A stretch of 64,000 nt of DNA from Malaciobacter molluscorum LMG 25693. GTDB lineage: Bacteria; Campylobacterota; Campylobacteria; Campylobacterales; Arcobacteraceae. The translations under genes and the position numbers were made by a program. Below the pieces are notes generated by a model, which saw nothing but the letters and a program-made list of their open reading frames with translations, was not told where the DNA came from and made no database searches. Positions 12,728 through 23,432 of this stretch are shown piece after piece. Positions within the stretch are counted from its first letter, which is position 1. Every line of letters starts with the position of its first letter. Where the stretch lies: contig NZ_CP032098.1 of the NCBI RefSeq assembly GCF_003544935.1, positions 806,001 to 870,000 of the forward strand. The letters run 5' to 3'.

Positions 12728-12969
12728 ATAACTCTCCTATATTTTTTTTTATTTTATAAAATTAGAGTTAATTATGTGTTAACTGATTAAAAAAGTGTCT
12801 ATACTTTCGGGGTTATTCCGCGTATTAGTATTAATAGAGGATTGATTTTATTTAATGTTTTATAAAATTTAATTGTGGCTCTATAAAAAAAGTAATATAT
12901 TATATTGTAAAAATATTCTATTTCTTTCAATTCCCTTCCTTTAATGGATAATAATATGCTTTATTTATA

Positions 12970-13338
12970 CTATTTCATATATTTTCTTGCATAAAAAACT
13001 ATTCCACCACCTAAAAATATTAAAAGCATATCCATAAAGAAAAAATAATTTATTTCATTTATATTAAAATATAATCCTATAAAACTTATAATATACCCAA
13101 CTGTTTGTAATATAGATTTTTTATCTATATAATTTCTTTTTTTTTCTATGTTTTGTGTATCTTTATATTTAAAAACTTCATATATATATGGATTTATAAG
13201 AACTATAGAAATAATAATTGTAATATAAACTAAAATATTCTCAGTATTATTTAATTGAGTATCATATTTAGATATGAAATAAATACTTACAAAAAGTAAT
13301 ATTATTCCAATTATTGCTTTATTTTTATTTGTAATCAT
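12970..13338 (-). CDS. small membrane protein, probable T6SS immunity protein (copy 2)
   Basis: About 122 residues with four predicted membrane segments. I chose the ATG at 13338, which has GGTGA just upstream; the TTG five codons earlier is less likely. The first half resembles the protein of the gene before it: both have K-AIIG at the start of the first segment, an IIIS segment in the middle and a P-x4-8-KY end, so the pair looks like a duplication, with this copy extended by two more membrane segments. It follows its paralogue by 17 bases and ends the island. Position after an effector-like gene suggests an immunity role. No database family is recognised. Confidence 0.6.
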   Translation of the reverse strand: MITNKNKAIIGIILLFVSIYFISKYDTQLNNTENILVYITIIISIVLINPYIYEVFKYKDTQNIEKKRNYIDKKSILQTVGYIISFIGLYFNINEINYFFFMDMLLIFLGGGIVFYARKYMK

Positions 13339-13355
13339 TTTGTTTTCACCCAATA

Positions 13356-13562
13356 TTAATTATATTTTTCAATACTTCTTAAATAAGGGAATAAAAGATA
13401 CATTCCATATATTCCAAATATTAAAGAAATAATTATAGTAAAATCACCAAAAAAGTTATTGATTGGATCGTTTAAATCAATTAATAAAATAAAATTTAAA
13501 AATATTAAAACTACACCTATAATTGCTTTTTTGCCTAAATTATTATTTGTATCTTTTTTCAT
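13356..13562 (-). CDS. small membrane protein, probable T6SS immunity protein (copy 1)
   Basis: 68 residues with two hydrophobic segments (about 14-29 and 41-58) and a short charged tail. AAGGA lies five bases before the ATG, which sits inside the 3' end of the effector-like gene (20-base overlap), so the two are translationally coupled. Membrane immunity proteins of this size commonly protect against effectors that attack the inner membrane or act in the periplasm. It is similar to the first half of the downstream gene product. Function is inferred from position only. Confidence 0.6.
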   Translation of the reverse strand: MKKDTNNNLGKKAIIGVVLIFLNFILLIDLNDPINNFFGDFTIIISLIFGIYGMYLLFPYLRSIEKYN

Positions 13563-14613
13563 TTTTATCCTTTGAAATATTATCTACTATATAAGTTAAG
13601 TATGGTTTTACAAAAAGTTCATTTGCTATTGATAATCGTTTGTCTCCATCTATAAAAATATCTAAAGTAGTATTTAACCCTAATTTTGTAATGTAAATAC
13701 TTCCATCTTCTTGTGCTAATCTAGATTTTATATAATTTGATATTCCTCCTACAATCGCAAAAAAAACTTTTGAATGAGGTATTGGAGGAGAACTCAAAAA
13801 AGCAACAGTACAAAAATTTTCTACATGTCCTAAACCTCTTATAGTACCACTTTTCAATTGAGATAAAAACTCTTCTTGATTCTCTTCATATATTTTATTT
13901 AAATAATCTTTTCTTTTTATATTATTATTAATTATATTTCTTGCTTCTTCTATATTCATATCATTTGGAATATAAGGTTGTGCCAAGTTATTTATCCAAT
14001 GATTACTTGTATCAATATGAGTTTCTTTTTTATGTCCTTTTTTTTCTTTAAATAGTTCCGCAAATAGTTCTACTGTTTTTACTTCTACTTTTATATTATC
14101 ACTATTTTCTTTAATTTTATTTTTTACAAATTTTAAAATTTCAGAAGATGTTTTTACTTCCTTTTTATATACTATATCAATTTTATTATTATAGTTTTTA
14201 TTTTCTTTAATTATTTTCTCTTTTAAATTTACTTGTTGTATAAATATTTCATCATTTTTTGAGCCAGTTAGAGTATAAAATAGGAAGTGAAGTTTTTTCT
14301 TTTCTTCCTCTACTTCTATCCAAACTTCTTTTTCATACTCTCTTGTTATTTCTTCATTATTATCTACATCAATCCATCCTGAAACATATTTGACTTTTGA
14401 GGAGTCTATTTTTAACTCATCTGCTAAGCTTAAGATTGTAAAGTTTTTCTCTACTTTTGTATTCTCTTGTACTTTTTCTTCATACTCTTTTTGTGCTAAT
14501 ACTTTTTTATTTTTATCAAAAAGTTTTAAAATTACTTTTACTTCTTGTCCTATTTGTACATTTACTGTTTTTGCTGTTAGTTTTATCTTATCATCTAGTT
14601 TCTTAGTTATCAT
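13543..14613 (-). CDS. putative T6SS effector with N-terminal Ig-like adaptor domain, activity unknown
   Basis: 356 residues, no signal peptide or clear membrane segment. Residues about 9-85 form a beta-rich domain that resembles the last 73 residues of the active VgrG upstream: shared landmarks are a V-x-VILK strand, N then AQ, a Q-x-N motif and a closing SG-x-I-x-V. The middle (105-215) is charged and alternates strands and helices; the end contains a Gly/His/Cys stretch (GLGHVENFC, about 261-269) and a hydrophobic run FFAIVGGI. I do not recognise a catalytic family. The ATG at 14613 overlaps the end of the orphan VgrG-tail frame, with AGGA eight bases upstream. It is followed by two overlapping small membrane genes, the usual effector-immunity order. 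Confidence 0.6.
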   Translation of the reverse strand: MITKKLDDKIKLTAKTVNVQIGQEVKVILKLFDKNKKVLAQKEYEEKVQENTKVEKNFTILSLADELKIDSSKVKYVSGWIDVDNNEEITREYEKEVWIEVEEEKKKLHFLFYTLTGSKNDEIFIQQVNLKEKIIKENKNYNNKIDIVYKKEVKTSSEILKFVKNKIKENSDNIKVEVKTVELFAELFKEKKGHKKETHIDTSNHWINNLAQPYIPNDMNIEEARNIINNNIKRKDYLNKIYEENQEEFLSQLKSGTIRGLGHVENFCTVAFLSSPPIPHSKVFFAIVGGISNYIKSRLAQEDGSIYITKLGLNTTLDIFIDGDKRLSIANELFVKPYLTYIVDNISKDKNEKRYK

Positions 14614-15547
14614 CTTCAAATCCTAAACTACTTATATATTTCCCTTTTTCATCATATGTTAATTTACTATTTGCACCATCTTGAATTTTACCTTCAATGT
14701 ATGCTAAGAAGTTAATCTCATATACTTTTTCTTCTTTTAGATTATGAATGATTGTCTCTTTTCCATTATAAATCTCTCTTTGTGTATCTTCTATTTGCCA
14801 TCTAATTTGTGCTAACTCTTCTTGTCTTGGTTCTTCTACATTTAATATAACTATACATTCACCTTCTTCTTGTGATACATGAGAACTAAGTATATCTTCA
14901 ACTTCTAAATATCTTGCAAGTTGTGTTTGTGTATATCCTTCTTCTTCACTATTACTTACAAAACAGTGTGCATGTCCTATTTTAAAGATATTTTCTTCTT
15001 CTAAAGTAACACTCATTTTTAATCCATTAATAGTGATATTATCATTTGTTGGATTATCTGTTAAAATATCTTTGTCTGCTTCATCATTGTTTTTAATAAA
15101 ATACCATTGTAATTGAGCTTCTTGAGTAGGAGTTAAATCAGTAGTTTTGCTCCAAACACCATTATAAAACTTCTCGACAATAGCTTCATACTCTAAAACT
15201 TGTGTTATATCATCTTGTTTTGTAATTGTAGGAATTAGTTCAACTACTCTTACTTTTTCATATAATGGTTTAGGTATTTCTACTTTTGCTACATCTTTTG
15301 CACTTACTCCACTATTAGCACTATTATCTACAAAGTTTGAGGTATTAAAGTGAATACCACTTGCATCTACTGTTAGGATATTACTTCCACATTTAAAGCT
15401 TATACCATTTGCTCCATCAAATAAGCAGTTATCTGAAGCTTGCACTTTCAAATCACTTGTATTTAGATGAAATCCATCTTCTATATCAACTCTTAACTCT
15501 TTCCCTATTTTTACAAATAGATTTTGTAAGTATTTATCTGTTATATT
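14603..15547 (-). pseudogene. orphan VgrG tail cassette without a start codon
   Basis: An open frame of about 314 codons begins right after, and in the same frame as, the stop codon of the LRR gene. Its first ~80 codons repeat VgrG residues 647-725 nearly exactly, then it diverges into about 230 residues with two beta-rich Ig-like stretches (WYFIKNNDEADKD and IRWQIEDTQRE areas) and ends overlapping the second effector gene. There is no ATG or GTG with a ribosome site at its head; a TTG at 15451 could start a 282-residue product but has a weak upstream signal. It looks like a silent replacement tail for VgrG, comparable to orphan Rhs tips, rather than random debris, because the frame is intact for 945 bases. 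It could also be expressed from the TTG. Confidence 0.75.
15301..15538. repeat. VgrG-tail direct repeat, copy B (silent)
   Basis: Aligned by eye with 18784-19021: 238 bases, no gaps, about 10 mismatches, same orientation. The offset is 3,483 bases, divisible by three, so crossing over keeps the reading frame. Homology ends sharply at the 3' end of the LRR gene. Confidence 0.93.
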
Positions 15548-16579
15548 TTATAATCCAAACCATCTTTTCCACCAAGGTTTTAACGTTTTACCATCTTTTT
15601 CAAAACAAGATTTTCTTTCTCGTACTTCTTCCATATTTTTAGGTGAACAATGTGCTAATGATCTATTAAAATACTCTTCTATTAGTTTTTCACTCAAATC
15701 TTCTGCAAATTTGATTGACTTTGATTCTTTTAAAGGACTTAAATATTTGATTTTTGTTTTAGTAAATAAAATTGAATTAAGATTTTTCATTTTTGCAAGT
15801 GGTGATATATCTTTTACTGGCATATCATGAAAATCAAATTCTTCTATACTATCTGCATGGATTAATGGTGTTAAATCTGTGATTGGGCTTCTTTCAATTC
15901 TAAGTTTTTTTAAATTTGGAAATTTATCTATACATTCTAAAGATTTTAGACTATTATCAAATAGTCTTAATTGTTCTAAGGATTGTAAACCTTTTAAATC
16001 ACATAAACTATTAATTTTTATAGATAACAAAGACAAATATTTTAAATTTATTAAATTATTAAGTGATTTGACATTTTTCCCATTATACACAGATAAATTC
16101 TCTAGGGTTCTAATTTTTCCTATATATTTTAAATCAATATCATCAGTAATATCTATACTAAGTTCTTTTAGTGGTAAATTTTCTAAGCTTTCCACACCTT
16201 TTGAAACATTATTAGAACTTAAGTCTAATTTAGTAAGTTTTGTGAGATATTTTAATGCAGTTATATCACTAATTTTATTATCCCATAAATTTAAGCTTTC
16301 ATTTGCTGAAAAATATTTAATAATACTAAGATCTGAGATATCTTTATTCGTAATATTTGGAAAGCCTTTCCCTTTTGCTAATTTTTCACAAATGAGAGGA
16401 TCATTTGGATCTAACAATGGTCTATTTATATCCATCTTTCTAAACTCATTATATCCTTCTATTAATGCATTAATAGTCTTTTGTTGTTCTATTGTAGGAT
16501 TCTTACATATATTTATAAAACTATCTTTACTTAATAAAAATGTGATGTTTAAAATTAATATTATAACTGTTTTTTTCAT
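15548..16579 (-). CDS. exported leucine-rich-repeat protein, probable immunity protein for the lipase effector
   Basis: 343 residues starting with a signal peptide (MKKTVIILILNITFLLS). From about residue 80 to 300 there are leucine-rich repeats of 20-23 residues, for example LTKLDLSSNNVS and LEQLRLFDNSLK, like the bacterial internalin-type repeats. The ATG overlaps the effector stop (ATGA, 4 bases) with GGAG seven bases upstream, so it is made in step with the effector. Lipase effectors of T6SS act in the periplasm and their immunity proteins are usually exported, which fits. No catalytic motif is seen. LRR proteins as immunity factors are not the common type, so the role is a strong positional inference, not proven. 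Confidence 0.7.
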   Translation of the reverse strand: MKKTVIILILNITFLLSKDSFINICKNPTIEQQKTINALIEGYNEFRKMDINRPLLDPNDPLICEKLAKGKGFPNITNKDISDLSIIKYFSANESLNLWDNKISDITALKYLTKLTKLDLSSNNVSKGVESLENLPLKELSIDITDDIDLKYIGKIRTLENLSVYNGKNVKSLNNLINLKYLSLLSIKINSLCDLKGLQSLEQLRLFDNSLKSLECIDKFPNLKKLRIERSPITDLTPLIHADSIEEFDFHDMPVKDISPLAKMKNLNSILFTKTKIKYLSPLKESKSIKFAEDLSEKLIEEYFNRSLAHCSPKNMEEVRERKSCFEKDGKTLKPWWKRWFGL

Positions 16580-18483
16580 TTATTCTCCATAACTTCTTTT
16601 AAAAATTCTTTTATTTTGGGATGAAGTATCCTTCTACTTGTAGAATGTGATTCTTGTAAAAAATAGATTAAACTTCCCATATTAAAAGCTTCTAATTTTC
16701 CTACAAATCTTTTTTTTAAAACTCTTTTTAATTTATTCATTATTTCTTTTAATTTATTTAAATTTGTTTCAATTTTATTATCTAATAAAACTTCTGCTAC
16801 AAATATTCCTACATTTGCCCATTTATCTATAAATGTATGAATTGAACTATGTGCAATTAAAGTAAATAGTATATCCATAAGGTTTGTTTGATTTGGACTA
16901 TTCGTATAGTTTTTTTCCATCTTTTTTATATTTTCTAAAAGAGTATAGTATCTTTTTGAAAATATTGCTGGATTCATTATATCTTCCATTTGTTGTTGCA
17001 TTCCATATTGTGGAGTAGTATGTGATAAAATAATCGCTTGAGTAAATTTACCAGTTGGAGCTGTTTGAACTGTTTTTTTATCATAATCATCTTCTTTTGT
17101 AACATCTAAAGCTTTTATATTCCTTTCTAAGAATGTTCCTTTAAATTGTTTACTTGGATCAACATATGTATCATCAAATTGATCAATATTATTATCTAAT
17201 ATTTTAAATAATATGTTCCAAAGAGAATTTGTGTTATTAGAGATTAAAGAGTTTTCATCTATATCTAAGAATGAATTAAGAGTTTCTATAAGTTTTTTTG
17301 AACCATTTAAATTATCTATATATCCTTTTCGAGAATAACTTGCATCTTCTTCATCTACTGTTCGTTTTGTTTCAATAAACACTGCTTTTAGTGCTCTAAT
17401 TCCCTCTAAAATCTCTTCCAATGAAGCTAATAGTTCTTGATATACATCATCTTTCAAAATTTGCCGTTTTATTTTAAGTTCATCTTTTGGGATAGTCTCT
17501 TTTAAAAAATCTGATACTTTAAATTCAATTTCTTTATTAATTTCTTTAAGGGATATAAATATACCAGATTCTATTTGTGTTTCATTATCTTTTTTATAAA
17601 ATACATTTTCAACAGATGTTAAAAAATTAATGGTTTTTTCATATAGAAGCTCTCCTTCACTATGACTCAACCAAAGATCTGTAAATTTATTAGTAGGAAT
17701 TTCTTTAAGAGCATTTATTGCTTTATCTATTAATCCTTCTTTGATTAACTCTCCTTCTTTATTTGCTTTATTAGTTGGTAATTTACTTCTAATAGAAAGT
17801 ACATTCTTTTCCTCTAGAACTTTTTGAATTAGAGATAAATCAAATAGAGAAAAATCAGCTAAAAAGTTTTGAGTAAGATCATAATCATTATAAGCATGCA
17901 TTATCTTTGTATTAGTATGAAATACTTTTGGTGTAACTTTTACTTGATGAAGATTGTTAAAAAATGGAGTTAATAAATAAGTAATAGACTTTATTTTCCA
18001 TTTTTTAGGCCATTGTTCTAATTTATCAATCTCTTTTGTCATTTCATTTATAACATTTCCACCGTGTGAATGACCTATTAGATGAAAATAAACTATTTCA
18101 TTTTTTATTGGCTCATAATAACCTTGATCATTATAGTTATCTTTCATACATAATCTTCTTACTAAATACTTACCCGCAGTCTCTCTATTTGATACACAAT
18201 TATCTCCACTCCAACCAAATTTATCAAAAACTATAAAATCAGTTATACTTTGTTCTAATTTTTTCATATTATCATAGAATGCTTTATCCCAATATTGTGA
18301 TGAAGATTGATAACTATTTGCTCTATGTGTTGTTTCATTAAAATTCAATCGTTTATTATTATCATATTGTATATTTGCAAAACTATTTACAGGGTCAGTT
18401 GTTCCAGGTACTAATATATAAATGTTTCTTGCATTTGGAACAGTTGTTTCATTTATTGTTTGAATTTTAAAATTCTTAGACAT
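16576..18483 (-). CDS. T6SS lipase-type (Tle-like) effector, alpha/beta hydrolase
   Basis: 635 residues, no signal peptide. The N-terminal third is an alpha/beta hydrolase: ARNIYILVPGTTDP is the first core strand with the oxyanion loop, and the nucleophile elbow GHSHGG puts Ser at 139 (residues 137-142). A plausible acid lies in the YNDYDLT segment and histidines follow, but I cannot fix the triad. The rest is helical and charged, with no membrane segment. G-x-S-x-G lipases encoded directly after vgrG are the Tle effectors that cut phospholipids in the target periplasm. The ATG overlaps the vgrG stop by 8 bases and has AGGAGAG five bases before it. The GHSHG elbow does not let me name one Tle subfamily. 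Confidence 0.78.
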   Translation of the reverse strand: MSKNFKIQTINETTVPNARNIYILVPGTTDPVNSFANIQYDNNKRLNFNETTHRANSYQSSSQYWDKAFYDNMKKLEQSITDFIVFDKFGWSGDNCVSNRETAGKYLVRRLCMKDNYNDQGYYEPIKNEIVYFHLIGHSHGGNVINEMTKEIDKLEQWPKKWKIKSITYLLTPFFNNLHQVKVTPKVFHTNTKIMHAYNDYDLTQNFLADFSLFDLSLIQKVLEEKNVLSIRSKLPTNKANKEGELIKEGLIDKAINALKEIPTNKFTDLWLSHSEGELLYEKTINFLTSVENVFYKKDNETQIESGIFISLKEINKEIEFKVSDFLKETIPKDELKIKRQILKDDVYQELLASLEEILEGIRALKAVFIETKRTVDEEDASYSRKGYIDNLNGSKKLIETLNSFLDIDENSLISNNTNSLWNILFKILDNNIDQFDDTYVDPSKQFKGTFLERNIKALDVTKEDDYDKKTVQTAPTGKFTQAIILSHTTPQYGMQQQMEDIMNPAIFSKRYYTLLENIKKMEKNYTNSPNQTNLMDILFTLIAHSSIHTFIDKWANVGIFVAEVLLDNKIETNLNKLKEIMNKLKRVLKKRFVGKLEAFNMGSLIYFLQESHSTSRRILHPKIKEFLKEVMENK

Positions 18484-20959
18484 TTATCTCTCCTGAGTAT
18501 TTCTTTATTGCATCTTCTTCTAAATTATTATCTTTTTTTAATTTTTCAATATCAAATTCTTGTAATATTCTATTTTTTTGAATAGTAGTTGTTTTTATTT
18601 CTTGTGCAATAATTTCTCCATTTGTATTAAGTCCTTTAAGTATTACATCTACACTTCTTCCATCTTTTAATAAACTATCTGCTTGTATAAAAAGAGTATT
18701 TTCTAACTGTTTAGTTATTGTTGTTCCATAATGATTTGTAATTCTCAGATTAATAATATCACCTTCTGTTACTACATCCTCAACACTTACTCCACCATTA
18801 GCACTATTATCTACAAAGTTTTGAGTATTAAAGTGAATACCACTTGCATCTACTGTTAGGATATTACTTCCACATTTAAAGCTTATACCATTTGCTCCAT
18901 CAAATAAGCAGTTATCTGAAGCTTGCACTTTTAAATCATTTGTATTTAGATGAAATCCATCTTCTATATCAACTCTTAGTTCTTTTCCTATTTTTACAAA
19001 TAGATTTTGTAAGAATTTATCAGATACATCTTTTTGAATATATTTATGCAAGATATTTTTGATTCTAAGTTCTACATCTCTTTCTAAATATGTCTTTTCA
19101 TTTTGTTTTATTAGTGTTTCTAAGTTTTGTTTATAGTGTTCTTCACAATCATTTTTAATAGTAGTAATAGATTCTTTCTCAACAGTTAAAATCTTGTTTG
19201 CTTTTATACTCTTTCTTTCCTCTTCTCCTACTGTTATGATTGAGTCTTTTTGGATTGTCTCTTCTTTATCATTTTCTACTAATAGTTTTGAGTTATTCTC
19301 TACATGTTTATATTCATCATTTAACACATGGGTTTTTAAATCTTTTTGTGCTCTAAATGATAGTAACTCTTCACCTTGTTTATCTTCAAACAGTATCTCA
19401 TTATACCCTTGTTTATGTTCATATTGTGGCATTGAGTTTGTTTTGATATAACTCTTTGTTTTATCTTTTGGAAGGTTATATGGTACTTTATTCTCTCCAT
19501 TATACAAGCTTCCTATTATTATTGGTTTATCTACATCTCCATTTACAAAACTTACTATTACTTCACTATTTACTCTTGGTAGAAATTGTGCTCCATAATT
19601 ATTACCTGCAAAGAAGTTTGAGTATCTTAAATAACAAGATATTGTTTTATTCTCTTCAAAGTGAAACAATACTTTTATTCTTCCTTGTTCATCTACATCT
19701 ATTGTATTCGCATCTTCTTTTGTATTACTATTACTACTTGCTACTATTGCTGTTTGTACTGAGTTTATTTTTGGTTTTATTATTGTATATGCTGGAACAT
19801 AATCTATATCTTTTGGAATTGAAGTAAATTCTACTTCATATTGCAGTTCATGTTTTTTCTTTTCATTTACATTTTGTATATATTCATCCAATGCATTTGG
19901 AAAGATCCCATTATATTTTACTTCAAGGATAATTACATCAAATACTTTTTTTGCTCTTTCATCTTCTAATTCTATATTCAAACTATCATTTATTACTAAT
20001 TCTTGGCTAGTTCCTTTTATCAAGTTTGATTTTACATATTCTCTTTTAGCTTCTATTTTATTATATTTATCCAAATCTTTATAAAGACTCTCATCTAGCA
20101 CATTTAGTTTATCTCTTAGGTTATTTCTTTTTATATCTACTCTTAATTGACTTGTTGATTGATTATCTTTTATACTAGAAGTTATTGCTGCTCCTGTTTG
20201 TATCTTATATTCCAAGCTTGGATTTGAGTAATCATAATAATCTTCTATTATATTAGTTGCTGTGAATCTTTTACTATGATTAAATTGGCTTACACTACTA
20301 TAGCTATTTATTATTGCATGTTCTGTTAGTTTACAAAGCACTATATTATATGGATTATTTGATGAGTATTCTACTATAAAGCTATAACCTTCTTCTTCAC
20401 ATAGCATTGTTAGAAATTCTAAATCACTTTGATTATATTGGGTTGTATATTCTCTTGTTACTTCATTTTTTATATCTATTTTTACATCTACATTTATATT
20501 TAACAGTTGGTTATATTTATTTATTATTTCACTAAATATTGTACTTACTTTTTTTTCATGATATATCTCATATCTATTATTTAATCCAAGATAATACAAA
20601 GGAGATACTATTTTTATTTTATAAAGGTATTTTTTTGCTACTACACTATCTTCACTTGCTTCATAAATCTTTCCATAGATACTTTTTTTATCTATTGGGT
20701 TTATTTCATCTTGTATTATTAGTTCTACATCTGTATCTACTATATCTTCTATTTCTATAAACTCTTCACTTACAAATACTACTTCAAATTCATATGGACT
20801 ATTTACTTTACTAATACCATTTAGTTTATATACACTCAAACTCTCATTTAGTATATCTGGCAAGTCACTTCTATAGTTTATTAGTCTTATTCTTGCTTTT
20901 ATGTTTTGGTTGATTTCTGATCGCAGTTGTTTAGTAATATTTTCTATTTTGCTAGACAT
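18476..20959 (-). CDS. vgrG: T6SS spike protein VgrG with Ig-like C-terminal extension
   Basis: 827 residues. Residues about 20-370 match the gp27-like base (SVYKLNG start, YTTQYNQSDLEFLTMLCEEEGY block), about 420-500 the OB domain (DEQGRIKVLFHF, LPRVNSEVIVSF and GDVDKPIIIGSLYN motifs), and about 500-725 the beta-helical needle with charged repeats. Residues 726-827 are an added tail ending in a beta-rich domain (755-827) similar to the N-terminus of the second effector. VgrG sits on the Hcp tube and carries effectors; the tail is the likely docking site for the lipase encoded next. No DUF2345-fused enzyme and no PAAR gene are visible nearby, and no other T6SS apparatus gene is in the window. 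Confidence 0.93.
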   Translation of the reverse strand: MSSKIENITKQLRSEINQNIKARIRLINYRSDLPDILNESLSVYKLNGISKVNSPYEFEVVFVSEEFIEIEDIVDTDVELIIQDEINPIDKKSIYGKIYEASEDSVVAKKYLYKIKIVSPLYYLGLNNRYEIYHEKKVSTIFSEIINKYNQLLNINVDVKIDIKNEVTREYTTQYNQSDLEFLTMLCEEEGYSFIVEYSSNNPYNIVLCKLTEHAIINSYSSVSQFNHSKRFTATNIIEDYYDYSNPSLEYKIQTGAAITSSIKDNQSTSQLRVDIKRNNLRDKLNVLDESLYKDLDKYNKIEAKREYVKSNLIKGTSQELVINDSLNIELEDERAKKVFDVIILEVKYNGIFPNALDEYIQNVNEKKKHELQYEVEFTSIPKDIDYVPAYTIIKPKINSVQTAIVASSNSNTKEDANTIDVDEQGRIKVLFHFEENKTISCYLRYSNFFAGNNYGAQFLPRVNSEVIVSFVNGDVDKPIIIGSLYNGENKVPYNLPKDKTKSYIKTNSMPQYEHKQGYNEILFEDKQGEELLSFRAQKDLKTHVLNDEYKHVENNSKLLVENDKEETIQKDSIITVGEEERKSIKANKILTVEKESITTIKNDCEEHYKQNLETLIKQNEKTYLERDVELRIKNILHKYIQKDVSDKFLQNLFVKIGKELRVDIEDGFHLNTNDLKVQASDNCLFDGANGISFKCGSNILTVDASGIHFNTQNFVDNSANGGVSVEDVVTEGDIINLRITNHYGTTITKQLENTLFIQADSLLKDGRSVDVILKGLNTNGEIIAQEIKTTTIQKNRILQEFDIEKLKKDNNLEEDAIKKYSGEINV
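18784..19021. repeat. VgrG-tail direct repeat, copy A (in active vgrG)
   Basis: This stretch encodes VgrG residues about 647-725 and is the counterpart of 15301-15538 (about 96 percent identical over 238 bases by eye). The sequence between the two copies carries the active tail, the lipase gene and the LRR gene. Confidence 0.93.
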
Positions 20960-21052
20960 AAAAATAGCCTTTATAAAAGTAATAGAAAATATTATCTAAA
21001 AATAAATTAAAAAATTATTAATATTTGATGAAAATTAATTTGCACTAGCTAT

Positions 21053-21079
21053 AAAAAGCTCGAAAAGTTTCGAGCTTTT
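21053..21079 (-). terminator. hairpin terminator after the decayed superoxide reductase gene
   Basis: A 12-base inverted repeat (arms AAAAGCTCGAAA and TTTCGAGCTTTT) lies just past the pseudogene stop; on the minus strand it ends in a T run. It is the intact terminator of a now broken gene. Confidence 0.8.
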
Positions 21080-21084
21080 AAAAA

Positions 21085-21352
21085 TTACGCTTCTACTTCA
21101 ACTGTTACGGGTGTTGATTCCTAAATCACGTGTTTTGTACAGTAACCATGTGCAACTAAGTTAAGTTTTTTACCAGTTGGAATAATTGTAAAAATTGTAG
21201 TGTTATGGGCTTTAATATTTCCTAGTGTTCCTGGAACATAAGTAGCTTTTGCAGTTTTTTCACAGTGGATAAATGGCGAGTGTCTATCAATAAGATCTTT
21301 TTTCGCTTCTCTCAACAGTATAAATGTCAACATATTTATTAATTTTTGGCAT
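21085..21352 (-). pseudogene. decayed class II superoxide reductase (desulfoferrodoxin-like) gene
   Basis: Reading from ATG 21352 gives MPKINKYVDIYTVER, the normal start of these small iron proteins. Two bases of a GA repeat are then missing, shifting the frame; the next frame continues EAKKDLIDRHSPFIHCEK. After ...KTAKA the sequence jumps to TYVPGTLGNIKAH, leaving out roughly 45 residues that normally hold the HP..HYI iron-ligand histidines. Near the end, YCTKH is followed by V-I-stop-E-S where relatives have G-I-W-E-S, so the Trp codon became TAG; the true end STPVTVEVEA and a normal stop follow. Superoxide reductase detoxifies superoxide in microaerophiles. With three lesions this copy cannot be functional. 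The comparison sequence is from memory of the family. Confidence 0.88.
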
Positions 21353-21470
21353 TATTTCTTTTTTTAAAATCGATATTATTATATAATAAAAATTATTAAT
21401 TGATAATCCTACTTAAAATTATAAAATAATAATTTAAGTTAAAAATTAGAATTATAGTCTTATTTTTAGA

Positions 21471-21476
21471 TATAAT
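21471..21476 (+). promoter_or_regulatory. -10 element placing the thiL transcript start at or next to its ATG
   Basis: TATAAT ends only 6 bases before the thiL ATG and no Shine-Dalgarno sequence is visible, so the mRNA is probably leaderless or nearly so. Confidence 0.5.
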
Positions 21477-21482
21477 TTCGCC

Positions 21483-22325
21483 ATGAATAAAGAAGATCAT
21501 TTTATACAACAATTTACAAATCAAACAAATTTAATAGGTGATGATGCTGCTGTTATTGGAGAAATGGTTTATTCTCAAGATGCATTTTTTGAAAATGTTC
21601 ATTTTAAAAAGGATTGGATGAGTTTAAAACAAATAGCTGCAAAATCAATGCTTGTAAATATTTCTGATGCAATCGCAATGAATGCAATACCGCAATATGC
21701 CCTTTTAACTGTTGCAATTCCTGCTTATTATTCTACATCTGATATGAGGAAATTAGCAAATGGATTTAAAAAAGTGGCAAAAGATTATAATATAAAAATT
21801 ATAGGTGGAGACACTATAAGTAATGAAAAGCTTGATATTTCAGTAACAATAATTTCAAAAAGTGAAAATCCTATATTTAGAAATGGAGCAAAAAAAGATG
21901 ATTTAGTTTGCTATACAGGAGATTTAGGAACTTGTAAAAAAGATTTAAAAAAACTTTTTAAAGGTAAAAAAATCTCTTCAAAATCAAAATTTATAAAGCC
22001 AAAATTAAAAGATAATTTTTTTTATGAAATTGCAAAATACGTAAATGCTTCATTAGATATTTCAGATGGATTATTCTTTGAGCTTGAAAGATTATCTAAA
22101 TCAAGTAAAGTAGGCTTTGAGTTCTTTGATAAAATATCAGAAAATATTGGAACTTCAGGCGAAGAGTATGAGATGTTATTTACTTTTCCTAAAAAATATT
22201 TAGAAAAAATAATGGCAGCATCTAAAAAACATAATATTGCATTGAATATTTTTGCAAAAGTAATTGAGGGAAAATATGAAACAAAGTATAAAAATCATCA
22301 TTTTAATAAAAGGGATAATAATTGA
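21483..22325 (+). CDS. thiL: thiamine-monophosphate kinase
   Basis: 280 residues (family 300-330; Campylobacterota forms are short). The ATP/metal motifs are visible: IGDDAAVI near residue 18, SMLVNISDAIAMNAIPQYAL in the dimer strand region, IIGGDTIS, and LDISDGLFFELERL with the final GEEYEMLFTF block. The enzyme phosphorylates thiamine phosphate to the active cofactor thiamine diphosphate in the cytoplasm. Its stop overlaps the TTG start of truD by four bases, so the two form an operon. There is no visible ribosome-binding site and the -10 box is almost adjacent. It lies directly beside the superoxide reductase pseudogene, transcribed divergently from it. Confidence 0.95.
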   Translation: MNKEDHFIQQFTNQTNLIGDDAAVIGEMVYSQDAFFENVHFKKDWMSLKQIAAKSMLVNISDAIAMNAIPQYALLTVAIPAYYSTSDMRKLANGFKKVAKDYNIKIIGGDTISNEKLDISVTIISKSENPIFRNGAKKDDLVCYTGDLGTCKKDLKKLFKGKKISSKSKFIKPKLKDNFFYEIAKYVNASLDISDGLFFELERLSKSSKVGFEFFDKISENIGTSGEEYEMLFTFPKKYLEKIMAASKKHNIALNIFAKVIEGKYETKYKNHHFNKRDNN

Positions 22326-23389
22326 ATAACTTACAAAGATACTTAAATCACTCAAAAATAGATGTACTTTTCAAGCAAAATAAAGATGATTTTGTTGTAA
22401 CAGAAGTACCATTATATGATTTTACAAATGAGGGTGAACATTTAATTATAAAATTTAGAAAAAAAGATTTGACAACTTGGGATGCAGTATCTATTTTTGC
22501 TAATCATTTTGGCTGTTCTACAAGAGATATTGGATATGCAGGTTTAAAAGATAAAAATGCAATGACAATACAAAGCATTTCAATAAATAAAAAATATGAA
22601 GAAAAACTTTCAAGTTTTGAACATGACAAAATTAAAATTTTAGAGACTACCTATCATCAAAATAAGATAAAAATAGGACATTTAAAAGGTAATAAATTTT
22701 TTATTAGATTAAAAAGAGTTTCTACTATTGATGCAAGAATAATTGAACAAGTTTTAGCACAATTAGCAATTTTTGGTATGCCTAATTATTTTGGATTTCA
22801 AAGATTTGGAATTGAAGGAGATAATTATAAAAAAGGTGAAGAAATAGTAAATGGTCAAAGAAGAGAAAAAGATAGAAAATTAAGACAAATGTATGTAAAT
22901 GCATACCAAAGTTTTTTATTTAATAACTGGTTATCTAAAAGAATTGAAATATCAAAATTAATAGAAGCATTTGAGCCAAAAGAGATTTATCAGAAATTAC
23001 ATTTACCGCAAGATTTAGTAAAACAAATGAAAGAACAAAAACACCCATTTAAAATTATGCTTGGAGATTTACTTAGCCATTATCCTTTTGGTAAGATCTT
23101 TTATGCAGAAGATTTAGAAAGTGAAGCAACTAAATTTTTTGATAAAGATAGAGTTCCGACGGGTTTATTATGTGGTAAAAGAGTAAAAACTGCACAAGAT
23201 TATGCACTTGAATATGAAAAAGATTTTACTAAAACTTTAAAAGAAGATGGAGCAAGAAGATTTGCATGGGTTTTTCCAATTGATATTGAAAGTAATTATA
23301 AAGAGGATAAAAACTGGATGGAGTTATCCTTTTATCTTCCAAAAGGATCTTATGCTACTGAATTTATTGCTGAGTTAATTCATCAATAA
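22322..23389 (+). CDS. truD: tRNA pseudouridine(13) synthase TruD
   Basis: 355 residues, similar to E. coli TruD (349). The N-terminal motif DDFVVTEVPLY and the catalytic block GYAGLKDKNAMTIQ are clear; Asp77 is the expected catalytic aspartate that attacks uridine. Later motifs FGMPNYFGFQRFG-like (IFGMPNYFGFQRFG) and the C-terminal LPKGSYATEFIAEL complete the family pattern. It modifies U13 in tRNA-Glu. The start is TTG overlapping the end of thiL. A dyad with a possible promoter for the next gene follows about 45 bases after the stop. Confidence 0.96.
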   Translation: MNNLQRYLNHSKIDVLFKQNKDDFVVTEVPLYDFTNEGEHLIIKFRKKDLTTWDAVSIFANHFGCSTRDIGYAGLKDKNAMTIQSISINKKYEEKLSSFEHDKIKILETTYHQNKIKIGHLKGNKFFIRLKRVSTIDARIIEQVLAQLAIFGMPNYFGFQRFGIEGDNYKKGEEIVNGQRREKDRKLRQMYVNAYQSFLFNNWLSKRIEISKLIEAFEPKEIYQKLHLPQDLVKQMKEQKHPFKIMLGDLLSHYPFGKIFYAEDLESEATKFFDKDRVPTGLLCGKRVKTAQDYALEYEKDFTKTLKEDGARRFAWVFPIDIESNYKEDKNWMELSFYLPKGSYATEFIAELIHQ

Positions 23390-23432
23390 TTAAAATATAT
23401 TAATTTTTTGTTATTTATGTTAAGTAAAAAAA

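What the first reader, a model, noticed from the sequence alone, without database searches (positions are those of the whole stretch)
21085..21352. Superoxide reductase pseudogene with three separate lesions
Normal start MPKINKYVDIYTVER, a 2-base loss in a GA repeat, an internal loss of about 45 codons apparently between short AKA-coding repeats, and Trp to TAG near YCTKH. Promoter-side and terminator sequences remain, so the loss looks recent. Loss of this oxygen-defence gene may mark a change in lifestyle or replacement by another enzyme.
Basis: partly seen in the sequence, partly recalled or inferred. Interest (0 to 1): 0.55.

Follow-up and report, generated by a model that had tools for sequence, protein, structure and literature searches.

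The report
Decayed superoxide reductase gene
An Arcobacter relative carries a broken copy of an oxygen-defence gene that related species keep intact; it still has an ordinary superoxide dismutase, so this looks like routine loss of a spare gene caught part-way.

Summary
Window 21085-21352 (minus strand) is a decayed 1Fe superoxide reductase (sor) gene, divergent to thiL; the five other genomes held for the genus (one is Malaciobacter halophilus) all have it intact there. Against the closest, G005, there are three coding lesions: one GA unit lost; a 117-bp (39-codon, not ~45) deletion between 9-bp direct repeats, removing two predicted iron-ligand histidines; and Trp117 to TAG. A fourth was missed: the Shine-Dalgarno site conserved in all five is gone. 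The native terminator has not remained: an 8.3-kb VgrG cassette lies right behind the stop codon, with a different hairpin. Independent lesions plus relaxed amino-acid change argue against assembly error. Decay looks recent (about a quarter of the time since the split from G005; 0.09-0.47). No second sor was found in this single-contig genome. Its Fe/Mn-type SOD is intact and genus-wide, so a resident partner and no newcomer. SOR is also absent from 26 other of 104 family genomes; no relic was seen beside thiL in the 21 checked. SOR absence does not track SOD presence across the family (20 of 27 vs 49 of 77, p = 0.36). Best reading: ordinary loss of a dispensable gene; a lifestyle change is not shown.

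The parts
21085..21352 (-). sor pseudogene (1Fe superoxide reductase), 268 bp left against 387 bp in five relatives
21358..21363 (-). Degenerated Shine-Dalgarno site; the AAGGAG present in all 5 congeners is lost
   Evidence: upstream lines of six genomes
21378..21406 (-). sigma-70-like promoter match (TTATCA-17-TATAAT) ahead of sor; a consensus match only (2 found in the region, 5.4 expected from shuffles)
21308..21313 (-). GA tract, one unit shorter than in G005; frameshift at codon 14
21244..21252 (-). Junction of the 117-bp deletion: the single GCAAAAGCT left where G005 has two copies
21121..21123 (-). TAG in place of Trp117, just after the Cys111/His114 pair
21054..21079 (.). 11-bp hairpin behind the sor stop; not the hairpin found there in G005
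   Evidence: the simple terminator scan, lists none here
12787..21080 (-). 8.3-kb VgrG/effector-like cassette array, absent at this place in G005, between sor and the NosL-domain gene
21483..22325 (+). thiL (thiamine-monophosphate kinase; name recalled), divergent neighbour that anchors the orthologous position

Best explanation
This is a true, irreversibly inactivated pseudogene of the family's 1Fe superoxide reductase. A lost GA unit (probably slippage), a deletion between short direct repeats, a nonsense change and loss of the ribosome-binding site have each damaged it. Shown: lesions, orthologous position, conservation of intact copies in the genus, relaxed amino-acid change, no second copy found. 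Inferred: the loss was tolerated because the resident Fe/Mn-type SOD already removes superoxide and rubrerythrins (and possibly other peroxidases, not searched) handle the peroxide.
For: Intact SOR (PF01880, no stop inside) in 5 of 5 other genomes of the genus. Divergent sor-thiL arrangement in these five and in 24 of 80 thiL loci from named records. Lesions by alignment. The deleted 39 codons contain His53 and His59, invariant in 16 of 16 aligned SORs (their role as iron ligands is recalled). Amino-acid-changing codons against G005: 8 of 13 changed codons, versus 4 of 24 for G002-G005 and 2 of 15 for G003-G004 over the same 89 codons (Fisher p = 0.010 and 0.016), and compatible with no constraint (expected 0.78, p = 0.18). 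No other copy: PF01880 and protein searches of the single-contig genome find only this locus. SOD is a full-length frame in this genome; a rubredoxin and two rubrerythrin-family genes are present.
Against: The number of substitutions is small, so the relaxation test is modest. Raw reads and other strains of the species could not be examined. The functional reason is inferred from gene content only, and the family-wide count gives it no support: SOD is in 20 of 27 SOR-lacking and 49 of 77 SOR-bearing genomes (p = 0.36), and 7 SOR-lacking genomes show no PF02777 match (two of these 7 are only 54% and 74% complete).
Confidence: 0.92

Rival explanations
1. Assembly or sequencing error in an intact gene.
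For: A two-base change in a short repeat is a typical long-read error (recalled); no reads could be checked.
Against: A precise 117-bp repeat-to-repeat deletion, a nonsense change, a lost Shine-Dalgarno site and about six further amino-acid changes on this branch would have to be wrong together, while thiL and truD next door are normal open frames.
Confidence: 0.02
2. The remaining 70-aa open frame (21121-21333) is a shortened gene that still makes a useful protein.
For: It starts with ATG and covers the first His region and the YCTKH pair.
Against: It lacks His53 and His59 and about three strands of the predicted fold, scores below the PF01880 cut-off (17.9 vs 22.2 bits), has lost the conserved Shine-Dalgarno site, and changes like unconstrained DNA.
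Confidence: 0.04
3. Insertion of the VgrG cassette triggered the loss by separating sor from its terminator or by disturbing the locus.
For: The junction with G005-like sequence lies a few bases behind the sor stop.
Against: The insertion lies outside the coding sequence and a hairpin is still present. In G003 and G004 about 4 kb of other DNA lies on the same side of an intact sor, so the site varies without harm to sor. Order of events unknown.
Confidence: 0.1
4. SOR was lost because of an ecological change (for example in oxygen exposure) rather than simple redundancy.
For: The published mirror case: Sulfurimonas pluma lost SOD, kept SOR, and this was read as an oxygen adaptation (PMC10066037, passages). 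SOR loss in this family does not follow SOD presence, so something other than SOD may matter.
Against: Nothing about habitat was tested. SOD, rubredoxin and rubrerythrin content resembles that of the genus; catalase is absent here and in 4 of the 5 relatives.
Confidence: 0.15

Closest known systems
1Fe superoxide reductase / neelaredoxin, PF01880, of Arcobacteraceae
   Same: Same start, position beside thiL, promoter region and remaining codons; the intact orthologue's predicted fold matches neelaredoxin structures best
   Different: Here frameshifted, internally deleted, nonsense-mutated and without its ribosome-binding site
SOD/SOR turnover in Sulfurimonas pluma (PMC10066037; passages read)
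   Same: A Campylobacterota species left with only one of the two kinds of superoxide enzyme
   Different: Mirror image: S. pluma lost SOD and has SOR; here SOR is lost and SOD kept
SOR absence elsewhere in the family (26 other genomes, 16 of them in genus group g11)
   Same: No PF01880 match; 19 of these 26 have SOD
   Different: No remnant beside thiL in the 21 genomes that could be checked; only the window shows a relic

Membership tests
Superoxide reductase (PF01880), as the ancestor of this locus | Profile match of the intact orthologue above the curated cut-off | tested here: met
   83.6 bits vs 22.2; but NCBIfam TIGR00332 gives 46.1 vs 61.9 and TIGR00320 18 vs 146.9, both below cut-off
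Superoxide reductase (PF01880), as the ancestor of this locus | Neelaredoxin fold | tested here: met
   Model of G005 SOR (pLDDT 86, pTM 0.79); the six best PDB matches are SORs, E 4.6e-9 to 9.6e-6, followed by other folds
Superoxide reductase (PF01880), as the ancestor of this locus | Four His and one Cys as iron ligands (recalled), here H25, H53, H59, C111, H114 | tested here: met
   All five invariant in 16 of 16 aligned SORs, one of them the C-terminally short L022
Superoxide reductase (PF01880), as the ancestor of this locus | Superoxide reductase activity of the intact protein | not testable with these tools
   needs an enzyme assay
Functional superoxide reductase, for the window copy itself | Open frame with all five ligands | tested here: not met
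   Frameshift at codon 14, H53 and H59 deleted, stop at codon 117
Pseudogene | Several independent disabling lesions and relaxed constraint | tested here: met
Pseudogene | No functional product | not testable with these tools
   needs RNA and protein measurement

The most novel reading that the evidence does not exclude
In Arcobacteraceae, SOR is shed again and again, and this genome catches one such loss in progress; the MAG G034, whose SOR frame stops just after Trp-Glu near the end, may be at an earlier stage. SOD presence may permit the loss but, on the counts here, does not predict it, so another factor would have to be found.
Probability: 0.22. Interest if true: 0.3.

Novelty: new member of a known kind. 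Interest (0 to 1): 0.17.

Why it matters
It is a clean, roughly datable example of a bacterium dropping one of two superoxide-removing enzymes, the reverse of a published case in the same phylum. With related species that keep SOR it offers a natural comparison, but pseudogenes of dispensable genes are common and no new mechanism is involved.

Tried and rejected
Phase variation through the GA run: rejected, because the run is only three or four units and the other lesions could not be switched back. RNA element: no Rfam match in 20900-21700 at gathering scores. A second SOR: none found. Newly acquired replacement SOD: rejected, because PF02777 is in 6 of 6 genomes of the genus and Cu/Zn SOD in 0 of 6.

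Recombination tract: between the window and G005 the stretch 21121-21540 is 404 of 420 identical (96%) while 21541-23400 is 1660 of 1860 (89%) (sums of the rows), and third positions in sor differ at 4 of 89 vs 67 of 274 in thiL (p = 1e-5). In the control pair G003-G004 sor is also slower at third positions (11 of 89, vs 69 of 274). A short imported tract is therefore possible but not shown; if real, the dating of the decay is less certain.

Recounted over all 104 (from the match tables): SOD in 20 of 27 SOR-lacking and 49 of 77 SOR-bearing genomes, p = 0.36, so no association. The 16 g11 losses may share ancestry; no test on a tree was made. I lowered the probability of the novel reading from 0.30 to 0.22 and the overall confidence from 0.93 to 0.92 for this.

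Literature: 'superoxide reductase + Arcobacter' (3 papers), '+ pseudogene' (18 papers, 10 listed), 'Malaciobacter + superoxide' (4 papers), a five-term gene-loss search (92 papers, 10 listed), '+ Campylobacterota' (2 papers). No title or abstract start that I saw was about this pseudogene; only passages of PMC10066037 and two reference-list passages of PMC3116461 were opened. The library does not hold most subscription journals.

Full report
Setting. The window lies at 806001-870000 of a single-contig genome of 2,800,582 bases. The sor remnant reads on the minus strand, 21352 to 21085, divergent to thiL (21483-22325, plus).

Observation. Reading the region in three frames and aligning it with intact genes shows a normal start, one GA unit fewer at codon 14 (frameshift), a 117-bp in-frame deletion whose junction is a single GCAAAAGCT where G005 has two copies, and TAG at codon 117. 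A translated search of the whole genome with the intact protein finds these three pieces and nothing else up to E = 10; PF01880 has no match at E <= 0.001. Two further points were missed. The AAGGAG ahead of the start codon in all five relatives is degenerate here. And the sequence behind the stop differs: in G005 39 bp separate the two conserved blocks where the window has 8,294 bp (12787-21080) of VgrG and effector-like genes. The hairpin now behind sor is not the one in G005.

What it was. The intact orthologue is a 128-aa protein with PF01880 at 83.6 bits. Its 7 PDB sequence matches are named superoxide reductase, desulfoferrodoxin iron-binding region or NEQ011, and its predicted fold is closest to Ignicoccus neelaredoxin. 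NCBIfam's two desulfoferrodoxin models match below their cut-offs. H25, H53, H59, C111 and H114 are invariant in 16 of 16 aligned sequences; that these bind the iron is recalled. The deletion removes H53 and H59. Before the first His these proteins have Asp-Arg where Thermotoga SOR has Glu-Lys (whose printed alignment starts at that Asp; the Glu is recalled).

Is it real decay? Over the 89 codons that can be compared, 8 of 13 changed codons between window and G005 alter the amino acid, against 4 of 24 (G002-G005) and 2 of 15 (G003-G004); the window value fits no constraint. Seven of the changes, the nonsense change included, I place on the window's branch from the codon list (codons 32 and 33 are ambiguous there). 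Per amino-acid-changing site this is 0.034, against 0.148 per branch at third positions of thiL, a ratio of 0.23 (0.09-0.47). So decay began well after the split from G005, if the two regions share one clock; a possible recombination tract or slow locus weakens this dating.

How widespread. PF01880 is in 77 of 104 genomes of the family, the window's own not among them, and in all five congeners. In 22 of the 26 other SOR-lacking genomes I looked for thiL: 21 have it, and none shows a sor relic in the roughly 1.5 kb fetched beside it at a loose threshold (the weak hits there are short and not beside thiL's start). The other four (G021, G075, G082, G114) were not looked at, and relics elsewhere in these genomes were not sought. 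The window is the only relic seen. One MAG (G034 = L022/L056) has a stop right after Trp-Glu; it may be early decay or an error.

Why tolerated. A Fe/Mn-type SOD (PF02777) is a complete frame in this genome with the conserved His and Asp-Val-Trp-Glu-His motifs (motif role recalled) and present in 6 of 6 of the genus. Rubredoxin is in 6 of 6 and rubrerythrin-family genes in 6 of 6. Catalase is absent here and present in only 1 of 6; Cu/Zn SOD in 0 of 6. Overlap with SOD is the simplest explanation, but it is inference, and the family-wide count does not support a link: SOD in 20 of 27 SOR-lacking and 49 of 77 SOR-bearing genomes, p = 0.36. A published Campylobacterota case went the other way: Sulfurimonas pluma lost SOD and has SOR (PMC10066037, passages).

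Verdict. It is an ordinary, recent, irreversible loss of a dispensable enzyme, with two refinements (ribosome-binding site lost, native terminator gone and a VgrG cassette in its place). Interest is low.

Noticed in passing
window 12787-21080: 8.3-kb array absent at this place in G005: VgrG (18476-20959), a 635-aa frame with no Pfam or NCBIfam family above cut-off and no PDB match, a leucine-rich-repeat protein, a frame (14603-15451) whose start repeats the C-terminal part of the VgrG, a 358-aa frame and a small membrane-type frame; looks like a type VI secretion effector cassette array.
   Followed up: partly
L022 (G034:C5) and L056: Otherwise conserved sor with TAA directly after Trp-Glu near the C-terminus; possible independent early decay or MAG error.
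   Followed up: partly
window 21121-21540: sor, intergenic region and the first bases of thiL are 96% identical to G005 while thiL and truD beyond are 89%; slow locus or short recombination tract.
   Followed up: partly
G002:C6:39573-39848, G094:C167:5677-5952, G110:C2:48564-48842: Second, divergent PF01880 protein (54-58 bits) in a few relatives.
   Followed up: no
L173 (G000:C1:1843900-1845200): 222-aa protein with an N-terminal CxxC...CC domain, a rubrerythrin domain and a C-terminal rubredoxin-like part; resembles desulforubrerythrin (recalled).
   Followed up: no
G089:C29:4619-7746: Two thiL copies about 2.3 kb apart in one genome, with part of a truD-like gene between them; duplication or assembly artefact.
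   Followed up: no
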